Source: Opitutaceae bacterium (GTDB taxonomy: Bacteria; Verrucomicrobiota; Verrucomicrobiia; Opitutales; Opitutaceae). From it: 49,434 nucleotides of DNA. Under the pieces are notes generated by a model. That model made no database searches. It had not been told where the DNA came from and was given only the letters and a program-made list of their open reading frames with translations. The stretch is taken from the NCBI GenBank assembly GCA_018667915.1, contig JABIRI010000333.1, forward strand, positions 1 through 49,434, in the 5' to 3' direction. The first letter of the stretch is position 1. Each line of letters begins with the position of its first letter. Below are positions 33,743 through 48,377 of this stretch, in pieces. Made by a program: the position numbers and the translations under genes.

Positions 33743-36082
33743 GTGTCCGCCTCTCGAGCCGTTTTTATTAGTTATGCGAGTGAAGATTCCGTGGCTGCAG
33801 CCAAGTTGGCTGAAAATTTGCGGCAGGTCGGCTTGGAGGTTTGGCTGGACCAAGTAGAACTCAAAGGTGGTGACGCTTGGGATGAAGATATCAAACGCCA
33901 GATTCGAGAGTGTTCTTTGTTTGTCCCGCTGGTTTCTGCCCAGTCAAATCAGCGGCTGGAAGGTTACTTCCGACTCGAATGGAAATTGGCGGCGGAACGC
34001 ACGCACAGTATGGCGGCGGGCGTCCGTTTTATTTTCCCAGTTTTACTCGATGATCTCCAAGAATCGGATGCGGTCGTTCCTGGGGACTTCAGGTCGTTTC
34101 AATGGTCGGGGTGGTCTCCCGCTGAATCACCCACCCAATTGGCAGCGCGTATCGCCGAAGTCTTGGCCGTGCCGACTCAATTATCCGATTCCTCGCGTTC
34201 GTCGGTGGCGAGCCCGCCCAAGCGAGGCAAAGGGCGGCTGATGTTTGGTTGGGGACTGGCCGTTGTTGCGTCGGTCTCCCTTTGGTTCCTGTTGAGCGGA
34301 GGAAATCGAAGCCAACCCGTCGACCGACAGGTTGAATCCAGCGAAGTCGCACCTGCGCGTTCGATCGCGGTCTTGCCTTTCAACAACCTTAGCCCTGAAG
34401 AGGGCAACGCCTACATCGCATCCGGAGTGCATGAGGATGTGATGGTCCACTTGTCTCGAATCGATGATTTGCAGGTCACAGCCATGACGGTGGTCGCTCG
34501 ATATGGGGCGGAACCAGAAAACTTCACGTCGATTGGATCAGAACTTGGAGTGCAGTTCATCCTTGCGGGGTCGGTGCGCAAGGCGGCCGACACCGTCCGG
34601 GTGACCGTGCAATTGGTGGATGTTTCGGCCAACCGCACCGTATGGGCCGAGGATTTTGAACGTAATCTTGGACAGTTGTTTGCTCTGCAATCGGAGATTG
34701 CGCGCGAGGTGGCGACTTCATTGCGGGCCAGAATCGAGCCCGAGGTGGCGGCGGTTTTGGACTCTCCACCCACCGAAAGTCCTCTGGCTTATGATGCCTA
34801 TCTTAATGCGCGCTCTCAACTTGGTGATGGTTTTTGGATTCCGTTCCAAGTGCTAGACTCAACGGAAGAATGTTTAAAAATGGCTTTGGAATTGGATGCG
34901 GATTTTGCCGAGGCCTGGGCGCTCTTGGCCGTCGTAAACAGCCGCCGTGTTTTTCAGTCGTGGTCGATCAATGAAGACAATTCGGCCCGAGATATTGCCG
35001 CCGCTGCAGCGTCTGAGGCGGTCGAGCGAGCCCGGACCCTTGCACCTGACGGCTTGGCCACCTTGGAGGCGGAGGGATTCTACTATAATTTTGTGAAGCA
35101 GGATTTCATTGCGGCTATCCGTTCGGTCGATCGAGCACTCCGGTTGGTCCCGAACGATAGCGCCAGTCTGATGATCCTCGGTTATGGTTATCGCTTAACC
35201 GGACAGGTCGACCTCGCGTTGGAAACGTTTGAACGTGCTTTGCAGCTCGATCCATCTGATGCAGCCTCTTTCCATATGCTGATGGCAACCCATCGCGATA
35301 CGGGCAACTATGCCAAGTTGGTCGACCTTTGCCTCCAAGCATCGCAGGATTACCCTGACCGGGGAGACTATCTGGTGGAATCAAAATACTACCAGTTTTT
35401 GGTGGACGGGTCATTGGCCTCTTTCGAGACCTACGAAATGGCCCTGAATACGGTGCAACAATCGGATAACTGTAACCCCGCCGTTTGGCGCCAAGGCAGA
35501 ATGACCGTCGCCATGTTGCGACAGGATTTTGAAACGTATGCCGAGCATTGGCACCAAGAATGGGAGGCCCACCACTGGGGTCACGGTGATTGGGTGTGTC
35601 CGCTGCAGACCAACGAGGAGGCCAATCATGCAGCCATGCTGCTCGGAATGGGTGAAAACGATGCCGCCCGGGATATACTTAACAAAGCAGCGGTGCAGGT
35701 GGAAATGCCGATCAACCCGATGGCCCAGTGCGCGTTTAACCCTGCGGTCATCAAACCCAAACTGCATTTTCTTACTGGCGAACGCGATGCAGCCCGGCAG
35801 GACCTCCAAAATGCTCTCCATCAGCTCGAGCAAAAAGATCCCTATTTCCGTAAATTCGTAGAAAAAGGCGTCTTGTTGGAAGCAGCTGAAATGGTGGCTC
35901 CGGATCTATCTTTTAAGATTTACCGCGACATCCAGAATGACCCGATGCGCCAGGTGACCTTTGAATCCGTTTGTGCAAACCCATGGACTTATCCGAATTT
36001 GATCAAAGACTCCCAATTCCAGAAAGAGATTCTGACCGATGGTCGGTTTATTGAGTTTCTCGAGTCCTTTGATTTTATCTAA
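33743..36082 (+). CDS. TIR - transmembrane - TolB-like - TPR protein
   Basis: Encodes 779 residues. Residues 1-142 form a TIR domain: AVFISYASEDS, VWLDQVELKGGDAW (BB loop) and FRLEWKLA with E79 at the position of the catalytic glutamate of TIR NADases. A linker and one transmembrane helix (about 166-186) follow. Residues 205-330 (SIAVLPFNNLSPEEGNAYIA, FILAGSVRK, VQLVDVSANRTVWAEDFER) match the TolB-like domain often joined to adenylate cyclases. TPR-like helices make up the remainder. The GTG at 33743 gives the family start; GAGGA overlaps it, so spacing is poor. Topology suggests the TIR in the cytoplasm and the repeats outside. The function is unknown; signalling or defence are both conceivable. 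Confidence 0.85.
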   Translation: MSASRAVFISYASEDSVAAAKLAENLRQVGLEVWLDQVELKGGDAWDEDIKRQIRECSLFVPLVSAQSNQRLEGYFRLEWKLAAERTHSMAAGVRFIFPVLLDDLQESDAVVPGDFRSFQWSGWSPAESPTQLAARIAEVLAVPTQLSDSSRSSVASPPKRGKGRLMFGWGLAVVASVSLWFLLSGGNRSQPVDRQVESSEVAPARSIAVLPFNNLSPEEGNAYIASGVHEDVMVHLSRIDDLQVTAMTVVARYGAEPENFTSIGSELGVQFILAGSVRKAADTVRVTVQLVDVSANRTVWAEDFERNLGQLFALQSEIAREVATSLRARIEPEVAAVLDSPPTESPLAYDAYLNARSQLGDGFWIPFQVLDSTEECLKMALELDADFAEAWALLAVVNSRRVFQSWSINEDNSARDIAAAAASEAVERARTLAPDGLATLEAEGFYYNFVKQDFIAAIRSVDRALRLVPNDSASLMILGYGYRLTGQVDLALETFERALQLDPSDAASFHMLMATHRDTGNYAKLVDLCLQASQDYPDRGDYLVESKYYQFLVDGSLASFETYEMALNTVQQSDNCNPAVWRQGRMTVAMLRQDFETYAEHWHQEWEAHHWGHGDWVCPLQTNEEANHAAMLLGMGENDAARDILNKAAVQVEMPINPMAQCAFNPAVIKPKLHFLTGERDAARQDLQNALHQLEQKDPYFRKFVEKGVLLEAAEMVAPDLSFKIYRDIQNDPMRQVTFESVCANPWTYPNLIKDSQFQKEILTDGRFIEFLESFDFI

Positions 36083-38459: not shown

Positions 38460-38510
38460 CCCTGCGGATTTATGATTCCGCTGGAAGAGGTGTTGGTGCA
38501 CCATTTTAAC

Positions 38511-39344
38511 ATGCTCGTAAGCACTGCTGAACTCGCTACCCATCTCGACGATCCTAACTGGGTTATTTTTGACTGCCGCCACGATTTAGGCAACGCGACC
38601 AAAGGAGCGGAGGTGTATGCTTCGGGCCATATCGCAGGGGCGTATTTTTCGGGAGTTGATCACGAGTTATCCGGTATCAAAACAGGCACGAGCGGTCGGC
38701 ACCCTTTGCCCGACCCGTCGGTGTTTGCGTATTTTTTGGCGAACTGTGGCGTGACCGCGGAAAGCCAAATCGTGGCCTACGACGATGTGGGGGGACAATA
38801 CGCGGCGCGCCTCTGGTGGATGACGCGGTGGATCGGCCATCCCTACGCCGCGGTGCTTGATGGCGGTTGGTCAAAATGGACCCACGAAGGGCGACCAGTC
38901 TCTACTGAGGTCCCGGCAGCCCGCCAGGGCGAGATTCCGGTTGAGGTCCATCCGGAATTTTTGGCGACTCTGTTTGAGGTGGAGCAATTGGTAGAGTCGG
39001 GTGCAGGACAAGTTTTGGACGCCCGGGCTCCCGAGCGTTTTCGGGGAGAGGTGGAACCATTAGACCCCGTGGCGGGCCACATTCCGGGTGCCGTGAATCA
39101 TTTCTTTAAACGGAGTTTGCAGGATGACCTGACTTTCAAGCCGAGTGCCGAGATTCGTCGCGAATTCGAATCCACATTGGGCGGACGAGATCCCGAGACC
39201 GTGGTGCATCAATGTGGATCAGGTATTACCGCTTGCGTTAATCTGCTTGCGATGGAACTAGCTGATTTAAGTGGTTCAAAACTCTACAGTGGCTCGTGGA
39301 GCGAATGGGTGGCGGACAGCAATCGCCCGGTGGCTCGTGGTTGA
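38511..39344 (+). CDS. Sulfurtransferase with two rhodanese domains
   Basis: Encodes 277 residues with two rhodanese folds, of which only the second is active: catalytic C235 in HQCGSGITAC, loop CGSGIT of the thiosulfate or 3-mercaptopyruvate sulfurtransferase type (SseA-like). VIFDCRHDL and GGQYAARLWW identify domain 1. The ATG at 38511 gives MLVSTAELATHL as in the family; an in-frame ATG at 38472 would add 13 residues. It transfers sulfane sulfur from thiosulfate or mercaptopyruvate to a thiol acceptor. The convergent repeat-protein gene ends 27 bases downstream. Confidence 0.9.
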   Translation: MLVSTAELATHLDDPNWVIFDCRHDLGNATKGAEVYASGHIAGAYFSGVDHELSGIKTGTSGRHPLPDPSVFAYFLANCGVTAESQIVAYDDVGGQYAARLWWMTRWIGHPYAAVLDGGWSKWTHEGRPVSTEVPAARQGEIPVEVHPEFLATLFEVEQLVESGAGQVLDARAPERFRGEVEPLDPVAGHIPGAVNHFFKRSLQDDLTFKPSAEIRREFESTLGGRDPETVVHQCGSGITACVNLLAMELADLSGSKLYSGSWSEWVADSNRPVARG

Positions 39345-39371: not shown

Positions 39372-40463
39372 CTAAGGCTGGGTGCGGGCGGCTACCCACG
39401 CGATGGCTGCGTCGATTTTGTCCTCTGAGACAAAGGGCGCCAACGTTGTTTTGAATTCTGGGTGGCTGTGTAGCTTTTCCAGCGGAGGGGAATACAAAAC
39501 AGTCGCTACATCAAACCGGCCCGGTCGACTCAGCACCGAGCCGATAAGGCGAAGGGCACGGTCGTAGTCGCCTTGGTAAACCAACGCCCTAATCAACATG
39601 GTTTCTTCGGCTTCGGTGCGATCGGACATCTGCTCAAGTCGACTGATCGCCTCAGGGTCTTGATGTGCCATCAGCACGAATATTTCGAGGTTCTGTAGCA
39701 GACGTTCGCTTCCCTCGGCGGCGTCGAATTGGGGAGTTAATTTACGCTGAGCTATTCTCGCAAAATGCTGTGCCAAAGTGCCATTTCCTTGATCCAAATA
39801 TGAGTCGGTGAGCGCGACTTCCGGCGGCAGGGGGCCACTCTTTAATAAAGAGTGTAAATCTCCCTCCCCAGCACGAATAGCCTGCCGTTGGTGAGCAAAT
39901 TGTCGCGCCAAGCCGAACACGGAGGGCGGCAACGACTGTATTTCCGTGGAGGTTTCGACGATCGAACGCGTCTTGGCGAGATAGGTATCTGGGTCCAGTT
40001 TGTAGGCGAAACGCGTGCGGGCGAGTTCGAGCGAAAGGGCAGGGGAAAGTCCCGAGTCACGCGAGTTGAGATGCGCGAGACTTTCCGCGGCCTGTTCGTA
40101 GCGGCGCGCTTGTCGATGGGTTTCGTAATCAATCCAGAGCTGTTCGTCCGATAACGCCGTGGCATCAGACTCATCCGCGGACACTTCGGGTTTTATTTCT
40201 GGAGCTACCGTTGCGGGAACCTCCGCGACGATCGGGGAGGTCTCAGGCACGGATGATTCTTCGACCGAGGGCTCGGTAGCTGGAGATTGTGCTATTGCGG
40301 GAGTGGCCGGTTTATCGAGCTGGGACCACCAAAAGACTCCTCCCGCCACCAGGACTAAGCCGGCCGCGGCCACTGCCCATCGTCTTGGAAACTTGGATTT
40401 TTTAGCAATCGGCTTAGCGGTCGGTTTAGCAATGGGTTCACTGGAGGCTACGGGTGCGGGCAC
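39372..40463 (-). CDS. TM/helical-repeat protein, probable 3' half of a split TIR gene
   Basis: Encodes 363 residues from GTG at 40463, the first start codon in this frame. A basic Pro-rich segment (1-28), one transmembrane helix (about 29-49, WAVAAAGLVLVAGGVFWW), a Ser/Pro/Val-rich linker and helical-repeat-like segments (YEQAAESLAHL, LARTRFAYKL, YQGDYDRALRLIG) follow. The reading frame stays open upstream of the GTG as an Ala-Pro-rich linker (AQSAPAPAPAQAP), and the TIR gene overlaps it by 16 bases in another frame. The order TIR-linker-TM-repeats is that of the intact protein at 33743-36082, so this is probably one gene broken near 40518-40522. Confidence 0.75.
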   Translation of the reverse strand: MPAPVASSEPIAKPTAKPIAKKSKFPRRWAVAAAGLVLVAGGVFWWSQLDKPATPAIAQSPATEPSVEESSVPETSPIVAEVPATVAPEIKPEVSADESDATALSDEQLWIDYETHRQARRYEQAAESLAHLNSRDSGLSPALSLELARTRFAYKLDPDTYLAKTRSIVETSTEIQSLPPSVFGLARQFAHQRQAIRAGEGDLHSLLKSGPLPPEVALTDSYLDQGNGTLAQHFARIAQRKLTPQFDAAEGSERLLQNLEIFVLMAHQDPEAISRLEQMSDRTEAEETMLIRALVYQGDYDRALRLIGSVLSRPGRFDVATVLYSPPLEKLHSHPEFKTTLAPFVSEDKIDAAIAWVAARTQP

Positions 40464-40978
40464 TGGAGTAGGCGCCTGCGCGGGTGCGGGTGCGGGCGCA
40501 CTTTGAGCGAATGCGAAGGGGGTAAGGATTGGCCTCCTGCAATGGGTGGAAATTCGATGTCCTTGGCTTGAGCCCCCAGCATCTGAATGGCCATTTCTAC
40601 AAACTCGGTGGAAACCTCCTCGGTATTTACCCGCAACCAGGGCAAGGTGCGAAAAGGTTTTGGCACGATCTCTTTGTAGTGCGAAGTATCATCAACGATT
40701 ACAGGTAGAATAAAGGTCGCTGCGGCCTCGAGGTTATCGATTTTCTTGGCTGCAACTTTCCACGCTATCCGAAACGACCCGAGTTTATTTGATTCCGCAT
40801 TTTTCGAAACCACCGGAATAAAAAGCAGACACTCACTGATGAAGTCTTTCGTCTCCGTAGTATACTCGGTTTTGCATTGGGTTTTGTAACCCTTGAGTTC
40901 CAGCGTCTCGGCCAACAGCTTTGCCGGATCGGCATCGGCGGAGCAATGGGAAATTAGGACGAGATTATCTGACGACAT
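40448..40978 (-). CDS. TIR-domain protein lacking the catalytic glutamate
   Basis: Encodes 176 residues. Residues 1-135 are a TIR domain clearly related to that at 33743: LVLISHCSADA against AVFISYASEDS, LLFIPVVSKNAESNKLGSFRIAWKVA against SLFVPLVSAQSNQRLEGYFRLEWKLA. The glutamate is replaced by A72, and the BB-loop region is about 15 residues shorter, so NADase activity is unlikely. The last ~20 residues (VRPHPHPRRRLL...) look like an out-of-frame reading of an Ala-Pro linker. It follows the membrane-protein gene by 34 bases on the minus strand. Confidence 0.8.
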   Translation of the reverse strand: MSSDNLVLISHCSADADPAKLLAETLELKGYKTQCKTEYTTETKDFISECLLFIPVVSKNAESNKLGSFRIAWKVAAKKIDNLEAAATFILPVIVDDTSHYKEIVPKPFRTLPWLRVNTEEVSTEFVEMAIQMLGAQAKDIEFPPIAGGQSLPPSHSLKVRPHPHPRRRLLQCPHP

Positions 40979-40994
40979 ACAGAAATGAGAACTC

Positions 40995-41019
40995 GGGATA
41001 GACTAGTAGGGTCTATCCC
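40995..41019 (-). promoter_or_regulatory. Hairpin between the membrane-protein gene and the TIR gene
   Basis: GGGATAGAC (40995-41003) pairs perfectly with GTCTATCCC (41011-41019) around a seven-base loop. It covers the stop codon of the membrane-protein gene and ends 16 bases before the TIR start. No T run follows on the minus strand, so it may reduce rather than end transcription. Confidence 0.45.
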
Positions 41020-41723
41020 TTAGGGGGAGGAGAATGCATCATCTCCTCAAATTCCAGCCCAGAAAGTCTTTTTATGCCACCGATAAGGCGCCAGAGCGCG
41101 TATATCGTGATGATCATGGTGGGCACGACGATGACGGGCCAACTCAGGGCATTCATCTTACCGAGTTCAGCGTTGAATTCGGGTGAGCCGGAGGGGCTTT
41201 GCAGAAGCCATCGTGCCAATACGTAGTTGAGCACCGCACTGATGGTGAACGACGCGACCAGCCAGTAGGTCGAAGAACGTAATAACCGGTCAAATATGTC
41301 AGCGTTACCGCGCTCGGCCAATGCGGTCTGAATTTTTCCAGTATCGAAGGCCTGATCGTTGAACAAGAACTGCCGCACCAACGGACGTGATGTATACATC
41401 GAGGCCCACACGGCTAATCCGATGATGGAGGGCACGGCGGCCTCCTTGACCGCGAACCAAAAATTGTCGACCTGCATCAATCCCAGGCCTCCGGTGAGTA
41501 GCACGCTGGCGAAACCGATGATTGAGATAAAGTTGGCTTCTCGCCGTTTCACAAAATCCCAAATGCCGTAACTGACGGGGAAAAGCAGCGCGATAATGAG
41601 TCCTGCCACTGGCCCAAGTCGTTCGGGAGTGCTGGCTTTGGCCAGAATCAACGATGGGATCGCGATATTGAACAGGATGTTGACCAGCAGGTTTTCGCGT
41701 TTGGCAGGAGGAGGCATCGGCAT
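41013..41723 (-). CDS. Six-helix membrane protein, VC0807-like
   Basis: Encodes about 236 residues with six hydrophobic segments, including LLVNILFNIAIPSLIL, LGPVAGLIIALLFPVSYGIW and FISIIGFASVLLTGGLGLM. The order and the short FVKRREA loop resemble VC0807-type integral membrane proteins; this assignment is from memory and tentative. The frame is open up to an ATG at 41846 that overlaps the pdxJ start codon. I prefer MPMPPPAKRENLL at 41723, because a -10-like TACAAT (41788-41783, minus strand) lies in between. First gene of the minus-strand TIR cluster. Role unknown. Confidence 0.7.
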   Translation of the reverse strand: MPMPPPAKRENLLVNILFNIAIPSLILAKASTPERLGPVAGLIIALLFPVSYGIWDFVKRREANFISIIGFASVLLTGGLGLMQVDNFWFAVKEAAVPSIIGLAVWASMYTSRPLVRQFLFNDQAFDTGKIQTALAERGNADIFDRLLRSSTYWLVASFTISAVLNYVLARWLLQSPSGSPEFNAELGKMNALSWPVIVVPTMIITIYALWRLIGGIKRLSGLEFEEMMHSPPPKG

Positions 41724-41844
41724 CCATCTAGGGGTTTTTATGGATGTCAGGGAAGCAGGAACCGTATCAATCCTCTGACGTAATTGTATCCGGTTCGCTT
41801 TTACTGGTTTCCTGAACTCCAAAAATGTTTTTTGCTCCGCTACC

Positions 41845-42591
41845 ATGATTCTCCTCGGTCTGAATATCGATCACTGTGCGACGGTTCGCCAAGCGCGCTA
41901 CCGTTCGGTCGCTCCGGGCGCAGAACCCGCCGTGGAACCGGATCCCGTCGCCCTCGCATTGCAGGCGGAAAGGGCCGGCGCGGATGGTATCACCATTCAT
42001 TTGCGCGAGGATCGTCGGCACATCATTGATGCTGATGTTGATCGGGTGCGGCGTGAGATTGGCACGCGCATGAATCTCGAGATGGCCTGCACCGATGAGA
42101 TGGCCGCTATCGCCAAACGCCTAAATCCGGACTCGGTCTGCCTCGTCCCGGAAAACCGCGCTGAAATCACAACCGAGGGTGGACTGGATGTGGTCGGTCA
42201 ACGGGATCGCGTTGCGTCGATTATCGATTCGATGGGGGAGGTTGGGGTCACCGTGAGCTTATTTATCGATCCGGACGAACCCCAGATCGCCCTCGCGGCG
42301 GAATTGGGCGCGCCCTGGGTCGAACTACATACGGGATCTTGGGCCAATGCATATTACGTGGCGGAGCAGCGTGCAGTTGAGTTTAACCGCTTAGTGCGCG
42401 GAGCGAATCAAGCTCATGCTGCGGGCCTCATCGTCAATGCCGGCCATGGCATCAACTATACCAATGTCACCGAAATTCGCACCTTACCTCACCTGCACGA
42501 GTGCAACATCGGTCACAGCATTATCAGTCGGGCGTTGTTCGTCGGAATCGATGACGCGGTGGGAGAAATGAAGACCTTACTCAACGCCTAG
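41845..42591 (+). CDS. pdxJ: Pyridoxine 5'-phosphate synthase
   Basis: Encodes 248 residues that condense 1-deoxyxylulose 5-phosphate with 3-amino-1-hydroxyacetone phosphate into pyridoxine 5'-phosphate (DXP-dependent vitamin B6 route). GLNIDHCATVRQAR, ITIHLREDRRHI with H52, NLEMA with E79 and VNAGHGINY with H201 contain the catalytic residues of the family. The ATG is the only good start. The divergent membrane-protein gene shares this boundary. Confidence 0.96.
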   Translation: MILLGLNIDHCATVRQARYRSVAPGAEPAVEPDPVALALQAERAGADGITIHLREDRRHIIDADVDRVRREIGTRMNLEMACTDEMAAIAKRLNPDSVCLVPENRAEITTEGGLDVVGQRDRVASIIDSMGEVGVTVSLFIDPDEPQIALAAELGAPWVELHTGSWANAYYVAEQRAVEFNRLVRGANQAHAAGLIVNAGHGINYTNVTEIRTLPHLHECNIGHSIISRALFVGIDDAVGEMKTLLNA

Positions 42592-43096: not shown

Positions 43097-43646
43097 AGAC
43101 GACGAAGCAGAGGAGGAGAAGGTTGACCGCAAGAGCCTCTCCCAAGTGCCATCCTGGTTGATGGTAGGATTTTTAGCGGGGGTGATAACGATGTGGTTAT
43201 TTCGTAGTCCCGCACCGGAATCACCGGTGGCGCCGTTACCGGTCGATCCTCCGGTCCCCGTGGCAGTGGAAAGTGTCCCGGTGGAGGAAACCGCCGCACA
43301 GGAAGCGAGCTTAGCTTTCGCTGAGGCCATATTTGATACCTTTCGCGACTGGGTCTTTTGGACCGACGACAAGACTCAGATTGCGCTGTGGAACACGGGC
43401 TCGATGTCGTTCTCGGATCGCTTTGAAGTTATTCGCACCCTCGAAGGTGACTACTTCCGGTCCATTTCTGAGTTCACCCGATTACCTCTACCGGGATACG
43501 GCCCGCCCAACAGTCCAATCCTATTTACCGAGACCACCGAACAGCGTTACAAACGGGAGATTTCACTGAATCCCGATGCCCTGCCGAAGCGGGAAAAACC
43601 CGCACCCGTGGAGTTGAATTCGTTACCACCACCGCCCGGTGGCTAA
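43089..43646 (+). CDS. Membrane-anchored protein of unknown function
   Basis: Encodes 185 residues: an acidic cytoplasmic start, one transmembrane helix (about 22-38, SWLMVGFLAGVITMWLF), a Pro/Val-rich linker (43-67) and a compact domain (about 70-155) with FRDWVFWTDDKTQIALWNTGSMSFSDRF, then a Pro-rich end. It is probably bitopic with the domain outside. It overlaps acpS by 8 bases and precedes the NAD(P)HX gene by 14, so it is part of the operon. The family is not recognised. Confidence 0.75.
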   Translation: MFEDDEAEEEKVDRKSLSQVPSWLMVGFLAGVITMWLFRSPAPESPVAPLPVDPPVPVAVESVPVEETAAQEASLAFAEAIFDTFRDWVFWTDDKTQIALWNTGSMSFSDRFEVIRTLEGDYFRSISEFTRLPLPGYGPPNSPILFTETTEQRYKREISLNPDALPKREKPAPVELNSLPPPPGG

Positions 43647-43660
43647 AATCAATTGGCTCG

Positions 43661-45154
43661 ATGAACACCCTCTCCGGATCTGATCCGATTCTCGACTGCG
43701 CTGCAGCGGCTGCGTTCGAGCAGGACCGGTTCGGCGGAGACGAAACCAAAGAGTGGCCGGCGATGCGCGCGGCCGGCGAGGCGTTGGCTCATGCCATATT
43801 GGCCGACCTAAACGTGGCCGGTGTCACTCCCGCTCAATCGGGACGCGTGCTCGTGCTGGTAGGAAAGGGGCACAATGGCGGAGATGCCATGCTCGCCGCG
43901 GCGCAGTTGGCTCAGGGCACGAATTGGTCTTTCGAAATCGGATTTATTTTTAGTCAGAATCGGTTACGTCCGTTGGCCGAAAGGGCATGGCGGGAATTAC
44001 AGGCCGAGGTGGGGAGCGAGCGCGTCCGAGCGGTGCGCCGGACGAACGCGGCTGGTTCCTACATCGCGATCATTGATGGCGTGTTCGGTTTTCAGTTTCG
44101 ATCGCCCTTGGCTAAACTCGCCCTGTCGTGGCTTGCAGGCGCGAATGAGATGAAGGCCGAGTTAAAATGTGCGGTCGATCTACCCAGCGGTTTGAGCGAC
44201 CCCGGCGCATTCCAAGCCGACGCGATTTACGCCACGGGTATCTTCAAGAGCCCCCTGTTGGAACATGTGGGTAAGAGTCGACTGCGGTATCTCGATCTGG
44301 GGTTTTTTGTCGATGAGGCGGAAGACGAGATTCGTGTGCTTACGTCACGAGTATTGGACCCGTTGCGGAGCCTGCGGGCGGTTGACTCCGATAAGCGAAC
44401 TTATGGTCAGTTGGCAGTGATCGGTGGTTCGAGAAGTTATCCGGGAGCGATAGGTATGGCCGTGGCGGCCGCACTTCAAAGTGGCGTGGGCAATGTCACC
44501 GCGTTTGTGCCAGAGTCCATTGCGCCGGCTTTTGCGGCGCGTTGGCCGGAAGCGATGTGGATGGGCTGCCCGGAGACAGAAGAGGGCGGTATTGCGATGG
44601 AGGCGGGCCTCATGATCCGACGACACTTGGAGCGCGCCACGGCGATGTTAATCGGTCCGGGAATCGGACGTGAGGCGGAAACGTTGGCGTTGGTCGCCGA
44701 TTTGATTCGGGAGATTAAGTGCCCGTTGGTTCTCGATGCCGATGCGTTGCAGCCCGAATTAGTGGACCTCGGATCCGCTCCCCGCGTGCTCACACCTCAT
44801 CAGGGCGAGTTTGATCGTATCACGAACCTGGGGGGAAGAGACCTGAGTGAATTGAATTGGTCAGTGCCTGCCGTGACGGTGTTGAAAGGCCCGGTGACAC
44901 GAATCTTTGACGGTTCCGTGGTCTACCATGGAATTCACGGGGGACCGGTGTTGGCCCGCGGAGGGAGTGGCGATATGTTGGCCGGACTGGTGGGCGGTCG
45001 ACTCGCTGTTCAGCCAAACGATTTGGCGTTAGCTGCGGCGCAAGGCGTAGTCTGGCATGGAATGGCTGCTCAATGGGTGGCGGAACATCGCGGTGAAATT
45101 GCCGTGCGCACGTCCGAAATTTTGTCTGCCCTGAACTCGGTGATCCGACCATGA
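43661..45154 (+). CDS. nnr: Bifunctional NAD(P)H-hydrate epimerase / ADP-dependent dehydratase
   Basis: Encodes 497 residues that repair hydrated NADH and NADPH. The N-terminal YjeF-type epimerase domain (about 1-220) has GKGHNGGDAM in place of the more usual GxGNNGGDG, and IIDGVFGFQF. The C-terminal ribokinase-like dehydratase domain has GGSRSYPGAIGMA, LIGPGIGR, LDADAL, LTPHQGEF and LARGGSGDMLAG. Fusion of both activities is common in bacteria. The stop overlaps the dprA ATG by four bases (ATGA). Confidence 0.94.
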   Translation: MNTLSGSDPILDCAAAAAFEQDRFGGDETKEWPAMRAAGEALAHAILADLNVAGVTPAQSGRVLVLVGKGHNGGDAMLAAAQLAQGTNWSFEIGFIFSQNRLRPLAERAWRELQAEVGSERVRAVRRTNAAGSYIAIIDGVFGFQFRSPLAKLALSWLAGANEMKAELKCAVDLPSGLSDPGAFQADAIYATGIFKSPLLEHVGKSRLRYLDLGFFVDEAEDEIRVLTSRVLDPLRSLRAVDSDKRTYGQLAVIGGSRSYPGAIGMAVAAALQSGVGNVTAFVPESIAPAFAARWPEAMWMGCPETEEGGIAMEAGLMIRRHLERATAMLIGPGIGREAETLALVADLIREIKCPLVLDADALQPELVDLGSAPRVLTPHQGEFDRITNLGGRDLSELNWSVPAVTVLKGPVTRIFDGSVVYHGIHGGPVLARGGSGDMLAGLVGGRLAVQPNDLALAAAQGVVWHGMAAQWVAEHRGEIAVRTSEILSALNSVIRP

Positions 45155-47346: not shown

Positions 47347-47801
47347 GGGCTGGTCCGGTCGAGTGATTCGATCTCTTCAATAAACTCCGAGGCGTCGCGA
47401 AACTGTTTGTAGATGCTGGCGAAGCGCACGTAGGCGACTTGGTCGATGCGGGAAAGGTTTTGCATCACGGCATCGCCGATTGCGCGGGAAGGGATTTGCG
47501 CATCAAACTGTGCTTCCAGAATGTCGATCACGTCTTCGACCAACATAGAGATGCGCTCCTCATCGATCGGACGTTTGTGGCAGGCCGCGCGGATGGACTG
47601 CGTAAGTTTGGCGCGATCGAAATCTTCGCGGCGCTCATCGCGTTTGAGCACAATGAGTCCTTCGCGAACCAATGTTTCGGTAGTGCTGAAGCGGTGACCG
47701 CATTCGAGACACTCGCGGCGGCGGCGGATGGTATTACCTTCCTTGCTTATGCGGGAGTCGGTGACCTTGTCCTCGATGGAGGTGCATTTTGGGCAGCGCA
47801 T
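47343..47801 (-). CDS. nrdR: Transcriptional repressor NrdR
   Basis: Encodes 152 residues of the repressor of ribonucleotide reductase genes. The N-terminal zinc ribbon has C3, C6, C31 and C34 (MRCPKC, RRRECLECGHRF). An ATP-cone domain spans about residues 46-136 (VLKRDERREDFDRAKL, VAYVRFASIYKQF). It senses dATP/ATP and binds NrdR boxes. trpG lies 9 bases upstream on the same strand. Confidence 0.96.
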   Translation of the reverse strand: MRCPKCTSIEDKVTDSRISKEGNTIRRRRECLECGHRFSTTETLVREGLIVLKRDERREDFDRAKLTQSIRAACHKRPIDEERISMLVEDVIDILEAQFDAQIPSRAIGDAVMQNLSRIDQVAYVRFASIYKQFRDASEFIEEIESLDRTSP

Positions 47802-47810
47802 GGTGGCGGA

Positions 47811-48377
47811 TCAGTTGAGGGTCAGGAAATTTTCGAGAATCTTCATGCCGCCCTCGGTGGCGATGGATTCGGGATGAAATTGCACGCCCCAGATGGGCAG
47901 ATCCTTATGCCGGATTCCCATGATCTCGCCTTCGGCGGTTTCGGCCGTGATCTCGAGGCAATCGGGACAGGAGTCGCGCTCAACCAGCAGGGAGTGGTAG
48001 CGCGTCCCGGCGAAGCCTTGGGGGAGTCCCGCGAATACGTCGGTATCTTGATGCGTGATCGGCGAGGTTTTACCGTGCATGAGCTGGTCAGCTCGCACGA
48101 TCTTACCGCCAAAATGTTGGGCAATGGATTGATGTCCCAGGCACACGCCGAAAAGCGGAACTTTACCGGCGAACTCAGCGATCATGCTCAGCGATACGCC
48201 CGCCTCGGTGGGGGAGCAGGGACCGGGGGAGATGAGCACGCGGTCGGGTTTTAGAGCGAGAGCCTCGGCTGGCGTGATCTCGTCATTGCGCAAGACACGT
48301 TGATCCACGCCCAATTGACCGAAGTATTGGACGAGGTTGAAAGTAAAGGAGTCGTAGTTGTCGATTACGAGTAGCAC
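47811..48377 (-). CDS. trpG: Anthranilate / aminodeoxychorismate synthase, glutaminase component
   Basis: Encodes 188 residues of a class I glutamine amidotransferase. [18 protein letters not shown] at the N-terminus fixes the GTG at 48377; the open frame continues upstream but overlaps tgt and is rejected. Triad C79 (GVCLGHQ), H168 and E170 (FHPES) are present. It feeds ammonia to TrpE or PabB; from sequence the two roles (trpG, pabA) cannot be separated, and no trpE/pabB is in the window. Confidence 0.92.

What the first reader, a model, noticed from the sequence alone, without database searches (positions are those of the whole stretch)
40448..40560. TIR and TM-repeat genes look like one gene split by a frameshift
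Seen: the TIR frame ends in an odd Pro/His/Arg-rich tail, while the -1 frame reads an Ala-Pro linker (AQSAPAPAPAQAP) running into the TM-repeat protein; both frames overlap. A run of five C on the coding strand (plus-strand G 40518-40522) is a likely slip site: a sixth base would fuse both parts into one TIR-linker-TM-repeat protein of the same plan as 33743-36082. It may be a sequencing error, a true mutation, phase variation or programmed frameshifting.
Basis: partly seen in the sequence, partly recalled or inferred. Interest (0 to 1): 0.62.

Follow-up and report, generated by a model that had tools for sequence, protein, structure and literature searches.

The report
Frameshifted TIR receptor gene in decay
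A bacterial membrane gene that is one piece in its relatives is cut in two here by a reading-frame shift; its enzyme half lacks a key residue and the sister genome has lost the gene, so it looks like a gene being lost rather than a new mechanism, although a weak slippage signal at the break cannot be ruled out.

Summary
The TIR frame (40978-40448, minus strand) overlaps by 241 nt the -1 frame that encodes the TM/TPR-like protein; a five-C run lies at 40518-40522. Both other genomes with this C-terminal half (G002, G007; same genus, same neighbours) carry ONE open frame (503, 509 aa; TIR-linker-TM-TPR-like) that fits the TIR frame before the C run and the other frame after it. So this is one ancestral gene, frame-broken in this assembly. 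After filtering for coding score, no other window gene was split against three relatives. The TIR half is unusually divergent (about 30% identity to orthologues that are 76% identical to each other) and is the only one of 41 aligned TIRs without the catalytic-type Glu (Ala72). In the closest genome (G005) the gene is deleted and both remaining TIR genes carry an in-frame TAG. Most likely: a genuine, recent frameshift in a TIR gene on its way to loss. Assembly error, coupled translation and dnaX-like -1 frameshifting remain possible; the last has a C_CCU tetramer with AGGAGG 10 nt upstream, but no supported hairpin, and no SD in either relative.

The parts
40448..40978 (-). TIR-domain ORF (176 aa), N-terminal half of the split gene; catalytic-type Glu replaced by Ala72 (codon GCG, 40765-40763)
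39372..40463 (-). C-terminal half as an ORF from GTG: Ala-Pro linker, one hydrophobic helix, weakly TPR-like helical domain; its frame is open upstream to 40688
40518..40522 (-). CCCCC run at or near which the relatives' single reading frame changes frame relative to the window
40533..40538 (-). AGGAGG (Shine-Dalgarno-like), 10 nt upstream of the C run; absent from G002 and G007
40448..40688 (-). stretch where both frames are open (241 nt); the zero-frame tail after LPP (22 residues) has no counterpart frame in the relatives
41013..41846 (-). upstream membrane-protein gene (weak PF04279 hit below cut-off), same neighbour in G002, G007 and G005
38508..39344 (+). downstream convergent sulfurtransferase-like gene (name recalled), same neighbour in G002 and G007; truncated with a stop in G005

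Best explanation
The ancestor had one gene for a TIR - Pro-rich linker - single TM helix - TPR-like protein, probably a membrane-anchored TIR (NADase-type) sensor or effector (function inferred). In this lineage the TIR domain changed quickly and lost its catalytic-type Glu, and a one-base net change at or near the C run put the second half out of frame; the order of these two events is inferred. Normal translation now gives a soluble, probably catalytically dead TIR with a 22-residue out-of-frame tail. The TM/TPR half is made only if ribosomes re-start at the GTG 13 nt before the stop, or slip. It is a gene in the course of loss; in the sister genome it is already deleted. Shown: fused orthologues, frame change in this assembly, Glu loss, divergence, absence in G005. 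Inferred: that the DNA change is real, its recency, and loss of function.
For: Single fused ORFs of 509 and 503 aa in G007 and G002 between the same two neighbours. The C-terminal half was found in 4 of 252 family genomes: own, G002, G007 and a weak 49-position hit in G237. At the junction the relatives read R-P-P-F in one frame; the window reads L-P-P, then F in the other frame. Split genes among relatives' genes with a window match: 1 of 53 G002, 0 of 44 G005, 1 of 9 G007, both being this gene. TIR half 30.9/29.5% identical to G002/G007, which are 75.8% to each other; C-terminal half 39.8/39.6 vs 56.9%; neighbouring genes about equidistant in all three. Glu in 40 of 41 aligned TIRs, Ala in the window (the rows come from the genus and from the strongest family matches). 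The column aligns with Glu77 of SPARTA TIR-APAZ, whose E77A is called the catalytic mutant (PMC10474274, passages). G005 lacks the gene, its sulfurtransferase-like gene is broken, and 2 of 2 TIR genes found there have an in-frame TAG. Longest end branch of 35 TIRs (6.75, median 0.4). No stop in the 363 codons of the second half, so the frame break is young or the half is still used.
Against: Codon positions of the TIR half still differ in the coding order (window-G002: pos1 .54, pos2 .41, pos3 .65), and neutral drift to the same identity leaves no stop in only 9 of 300 runs. The protein was therefore kept under constraint for most of its divergence, so long neutral decay is wrong; only the last step can be decay. 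A TIR-like fold is still predicted (pLDDT 83.7). No reads or second strain were available. An SD-like hexamer sits 10 nt before the C run. The tree did not join the window TIR to its syntenic orthologues.
Confidence: 0.58

Rival explanations
1. Assembly or sequencing error: the organism has one intact fused gene and the contig miscounts the C run.
For: Relatives are fused, one of them with a six-C run at the same place; both halves are stop-free and coding-like; the genome is a 361-contig draft. Antonov et al. expect singletons whose frameshift is validated by homology to be sequencing errors rather than genuine indels (PMC3711429, passages).
Against: No other gene passing the coding-score filter is split in this window against G002, G005 or G007; five C is a short run; the affected gene is the one with the lost catalytic Glu and extreme divergence, which an error would not predict.
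Confidence: 0.17
2. Functional -1 ribosomal frameshifting, dnaX-like: a C_CCU tetramer with an internal Shine-Dalgarno 10 nt upstream makes mostly soluble TIR and a little full-length membrane protein.
For: In the zero frame the site is CCC CCT, i.e. the tetramer C_CC.U, one of six shift-prone Z_ZZN motifs in E. coli with the IS3 pseudoknot (PMC4066793, abstract and passages). AGGAG/GGAGG 8-12 nt upstream of an exact C5 run occurs at 1 of 434 such runs in 432 kb of this genome read on both strands: only here. Slippage there would yield L-P-P-F like the relatives' R-P-P-F. G002 has a six-C run (C_CCC_CCA in its zero frame) at the same place. The protein-level constraint on the TIR fits continued use.
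Against: Neither relative has the frame change or an SD-like sequence in the 40 nt upstream, and G007 has no C run there; no X_XXZ_ZZN heptamer in the window; downstream RNA folds no better than shuffles (z -0.49, -0.83; a longer stretch with upstream sequence -1.66). The SD pattern was tested after being seen and no chance expectation was computed. [quoted passage not shown] The genome's anti-SD could not be checked.
Confidence: 0.12
3. Two proteins from one message by coupled re-initiation: GTG 40463 lies 13 nt upstream of the TIR stop, so the membrane/TPR half is made as a separate protein.
For: GTG in the right frame with stop and start overlapping; both halves stop-free. Nearness of the ORF2 start to the ORF1 stop is a criterion for coupling in PMC3711429 (passages).
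Against: No relative found has two genes; by eye only a weak SD (AGG) before the GTG.
Confidence: 0.1
4. Phase variation by slippage of the C run.
For: Homopolymer at the junction, six C long in G002.
Against: Short run; none in G007; no other phase-variable genes were looked for.
Confidence: 0.03

Closest known systems
Bacterial TIR_2 (PF13676) receptor-like proteins with TM and TPR-type C-terminus
   Same: Orthologues G002/G007 are TIR-TM-TPR-like single ORFs (TPR hits below cut-off)
   Different: Split into two frames here and the catalytic-type Glu is missing
TIR NADase effectors such as SPARTA TIR-APAZ
   Same: TIR-like fold; the FRxEW Glu column aligns with Glu77 of TIR-APAZ
   Different: Window TIR has Ala at that column; no PADLOC match for either split ORF; no APAZ in the Pfam hits
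dnaX-type -1 programmed frameshifting
   Same: Internal SD-like sequence 10 nt upstream of a slip-prone motif (the dnaX spacing is recalled)
   Different: Weak tetramer instead of A_AAA_AAG, no supported hairpin, frame change not shared by relatives
Frameshifted bacterial pseudogenes (GeneTack singletons, PMC3711429, passages)
   Same: Singleton frame transition with fused homologues
   Different: Both halves still stop-free, so early at most

Membership tests
TIR domain (PF13676) | Profile score over gathering cut-off | tested here: met
   29.6 bits, cut-off 28; TIR-like model; best PDB matches are TIRs, mixed with other Rossmann-like folds
Catalytic TIR NADase | Conserved Glu of the FRxEW column | tested here: not met
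   Ala72 in the window; Glu in the other 40 of 41
Catalytic TIR NADase | NAD+ cleavage | not testable with these tools
   needs an assay
TPR protein (C-terminal half) | TPR profile over cut-off | tested here: inconclusive
   Best PF14559 18.1 bits, cut-off 25; all-helical but low-confidence model, pLDDT 55.2
Pseudogene | Intact orthologue exists, frame broken here | tested here: met
Pseudogene | Loss of function / expression | not testable with these tools
   no expression data
Programmed -1 frameshift gene | Frame change conserved in relatives | tested here: not met
   G002 and G007 are in one frame; G002 keeps a C run, G007 does not
Programmed -1 frameshift gene | Recognised slip motif in the zero frame | tested here: met
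   C_CC.U tetramer (motif list)
Programmed -1 frameshift gene | Downstream stimulatory structure | tested here: inconclusive
   z -0.49 and -0.83, no better than shuffles
Anti-phage defence system (PADLOC) | Match to a defence model | tested here: not met
   0 families for either split ORF at E up to 1; fused orthologues only weak SAVED_TIR hits, E 0.006 and 0.015

The most novel reading that the evidence does not exclude
A one-base change turned a one-piece TIR membrane receptor into a dnaX-like two-product gene: an internal Shine-Dalgarno 10 nt upstream of a C_CCU slip site gives much soluble, catalytically dead TIR and a little full-length membrane TIR-TPR protein, a frameshift-set ratio of decoy to receptor.
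Probability: 0.08. Interest if true: 0.68.

Novelty: new member of a known kind. Interest (0 to 1): 0.33.

Why it matters
It documents the loss of a TIR gene in steps (fast divergence, loss of the catalytic residue, frame break, absence in the sister genome) and warns annotators that the two ORFs are one ancestral gene. In its genus TIR genes are often broken: of 19 distinct TIR loci in 8 genomes (26 rows, eight identical G006 copies counted once), at least 5 look broken (this one; two in G005; one in G006 and one in G004). One further weak G006 match with a stop was not examined, and the rest were not checked for frame breaks beyond the stop count. If the slippage reading were true, it would be a case of frameshifting in a bacterial TIR gene; two searches of the held papers showed no such bacterial case (15 of 29 papers listed; 1 paper; listings only).

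Tried and rejected
Rejected: 'same protein plan as 33743-36082' beyond domain level. Rejected: a third fused orthologue in G003 (L021, 535 aa); its TIR resembles (FRNEW) but its C-terminal half does not. Long neutral decay of the TIR half was considered and rejected as the whole story. The unfiltered frame-split survey (all ORFs of 100 aa or more) flagged 10 ORFs: the two TIR orthologues and eight others. The eight dropped out under the coding-score filter; seven match the window's minus strand opposite plus-strand genes and one (L100 9115-9579) overlaps two plus-strand genes, so I take them as spurious. In the reverse survey window ORF 47367-48251 appeared split in G002 with stops in G002 and G007, and window 43472-45151 had one stop in its G002 match; neither was followed up. 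A coding-potential survey for other frame switches over the own-genome stretches gave 83 overlapping pairs and did not discriminate. The tree (35 of the 41 TIRs, those over 100 residues) did not place the window TIR with its syntenic orthologues or anywhere else. The structure of the C-terminal half was too uncertain to search. The promoter/terminator scan was at chance level. The pattern for the 16S end found nothing in this draft. The 'tpr' rows were read in the wrong frame and are not used; replace them. An earlier count gave the wrong upstream stop (40599) for the second frame; it is 40691-40689.

Full report
Observation. The overlap is real. On the minus strand the TIR ORF runs 40978-40448 and ends at a TAG (40450). 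The -1 frame is open from after a TGA at 40691-40689 to the stop at 39374 and encodes an Ala-Pro linker, a hydrophobic helix and a helical C-terminal domain, so both frames are open over 241 nt. CCCCC is at 40522-40518. Codon usage trained on 143 long ORFs of the same genome (86,469 codons) is coding-like in the TIR frame upstream and in the other frame downstream; among switch points tested at 40600-40441 the twelve best lie at 40531-40481.

Relatives. The window is contig C14 of a 361-contig draft, 99% complete. The C-terminal half was searched in 57 relatives (3 with a match, own genome included) and, as a profile, in 252 family genomes (4 with a match: own, G002, G007, and a weak 49-position hit in G237). 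In both G007 and G002 it is part of a single ORF, 509 and 503 aa, that starts with a TIR domain. The place is the same: a membrane-protein gene upstream and a sulfurtransferase-like gene (name recalled) downstream. At the junction G007 reads CGT CCG CCG TTT and G002 CGC CCC CCA TTC, the latter holding a run of six C in frame; the window reads TTA CCC CC with TTC following in the other frame. The relatives agree with the TIR frame before the run and with the other frame after it. The linker beyond is not conserved, so the exact base cannot be fixed by alignment alone.

Is the contig full of frame errors? No sign of it. Of 53 G002, 44 G005 and 9 G007 genes with a window match, only the TIR gene is split, in the G002 and G007 comparisons. 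A looser survey without the coding-score filter flagged eight more ORFs, which I take as spurious (see Tried and rejected).

State of the gene. The TIR half is 30.9% and 29.5% identical to G002 and G007, which share 75.8%; the C-terminal half 39.8% and 39.6% against 56.9%; the neighbours are about equally distant in the three pairs (window-G002, window-G007, G002-G007), e.g. the membrane gene 80.0/84.7/83.3% and window 41845-42591 80.2/85.8/83.7%. The window TIR has the longest end branch of 35 TIRs, and the tree could not place it. Of 41 aligned TIRs, 40 have Glu in the FRxEW column and the window alone has Ala (residue 72); the set holds genus members and the strongest family matches, so it is not a random sample. 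The profile alignment puts this column on Glu77 of SPARTA TIR-APAZ (counted by script on chain 8z92; the alignment to the 8fex/8i87/8i88 sequence is in register). E77A is named as the catalytic mutant in the paper that deposited 8i87 and 8i88 (PMC10474274, passages). A TIR-like fold is still predicted (pLDDT 83.7); of 18 PDB matches at E up to 0.001 most are TIRs or TIR-bearing proteins (best E 3e-5), with some other Rossmann-like folds among them. Yet the differences per codon position keep the coding order, and random drift to the same identity leaves no stop in only 9 of 300 simulations (mean 3.25 stops). The domain was therefore selected as a protein through most of its divergence, perhaps in a non-enzymatic role, and the frame break must be late, or tolerated.

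The sister genome. G005 is the closest at the neighbouring genes compared (87.6% for the membrane gene). It has no TIR gene here: the sulfurtransferase-like gene, with an internal TGA and a cut end, runs straight to the membrane gene. Of 42 window ORFs matched in the G005 stretch, nine had stops in the match: the sulfurtransferase (stops after its start), four with stops only before the first Met, and four on the minus strand that look antisense (that last reading is mine). Both TIR genes found in G005 have an in-frame TAG in the TIR domain. In G004 a TIR gene changes frame and lacks its middle (a 770-contig draft), and in G006 a TIR gene with a TAG occurs in eight identical copies. TIR genes in this genus are thus often broken. 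In the family-wide list the rows shown had no stops inside, but that list was cut at the strongest matches, so it is no fair control.

Mechanism. I favour a real, recent frame break in a gene already without its catalytic Glu (the order is inferred). Error remains possible because no reads were at hand. A recoding reading deserves a test: the zero frame has C_CC.U, which was shift-prone in E. coli with a stimulator (PMC4066793, abstract and passages), and AGGAGG sits 10 nt upstream; among 434 exact C5 runs in 432 kb of this genome, read on both strands, only this one has AGGAG or GGAGG at 8-12 nt. Against it: the relatives lack the frame change and the SD-like sequence, and G007 lacks the C run; the downstream RNA is not specially structured; and the pattern was chosen after it was seen. 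Coupled re-initiation at GTG 40463 is also open.

Known or new. The parts are known kinds: a TIR-TM-TPR-like protein and a frameshifted singleton. Paper searches for TIR with frameshift and pseudogene and for TIR with programmed frameshift (listings only, 15 of 29 and 1 of 1 shown) showed no bacterial case like it. Interest is modest unless the recoding test is positive.

Noticed in passing
L013 (G005:C4:12596-13195) and L016 (G005:C79:4016-4555): Both TIR genes found in G005 carry a single in-frame TAG inside the TIR domain (at a Trp and at a Glu position of their homologues).
   Followed up: partly
L137, L142, L145, L148, L150, L151, L152, L153 (G006): Eight copies, identical over 3.0-3.4 kb of the fetched stretches, of a TIR gene with an NTPase-like C-terminal part (named from the look of the sequence) and a TAG in the TIR region. 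G006 (4.4 Mb, 10 contigs) fits 'Ca. Synoicihabitans palmerolidicus', described with 10 contigs and repeated clusters (PMC8636102, passages); identity inferred.
   Followed up: partly
L069 4026-4679 (G005:C21): Sulfurtransferase-like gene with an internal TGA and a deleted 3' end abutting the end of the membrane-protein gene: likely scar of the deletion that removed the TIR gene.
   Followed up: yes
L075 (G004:C119): A TIR gene whose start and C-terminal TPR-like end are in different frames with the middle missing, next to another TIR gene; may be an assembly join.
   Followed up: no
L006 1338-1343 (G002): Run of six C, zero-frame C_CCC_CCA, at the place where the window has five C; the gene is in one frame there and the -1 frame stops 49 codons on.
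   Followed up: partly
window 33743-36082: Second, intact TIR-TM-TPR gene (weak FlgO/LpoB hits in the middle) 4 kb away, with the FRxEW Glu present.
   Followed up: partly
window 47367-48251: ORF whose match in G002 is split with stops, and in G007 has one stop; antisense ORF or another decaying gene.
   Followed up: no
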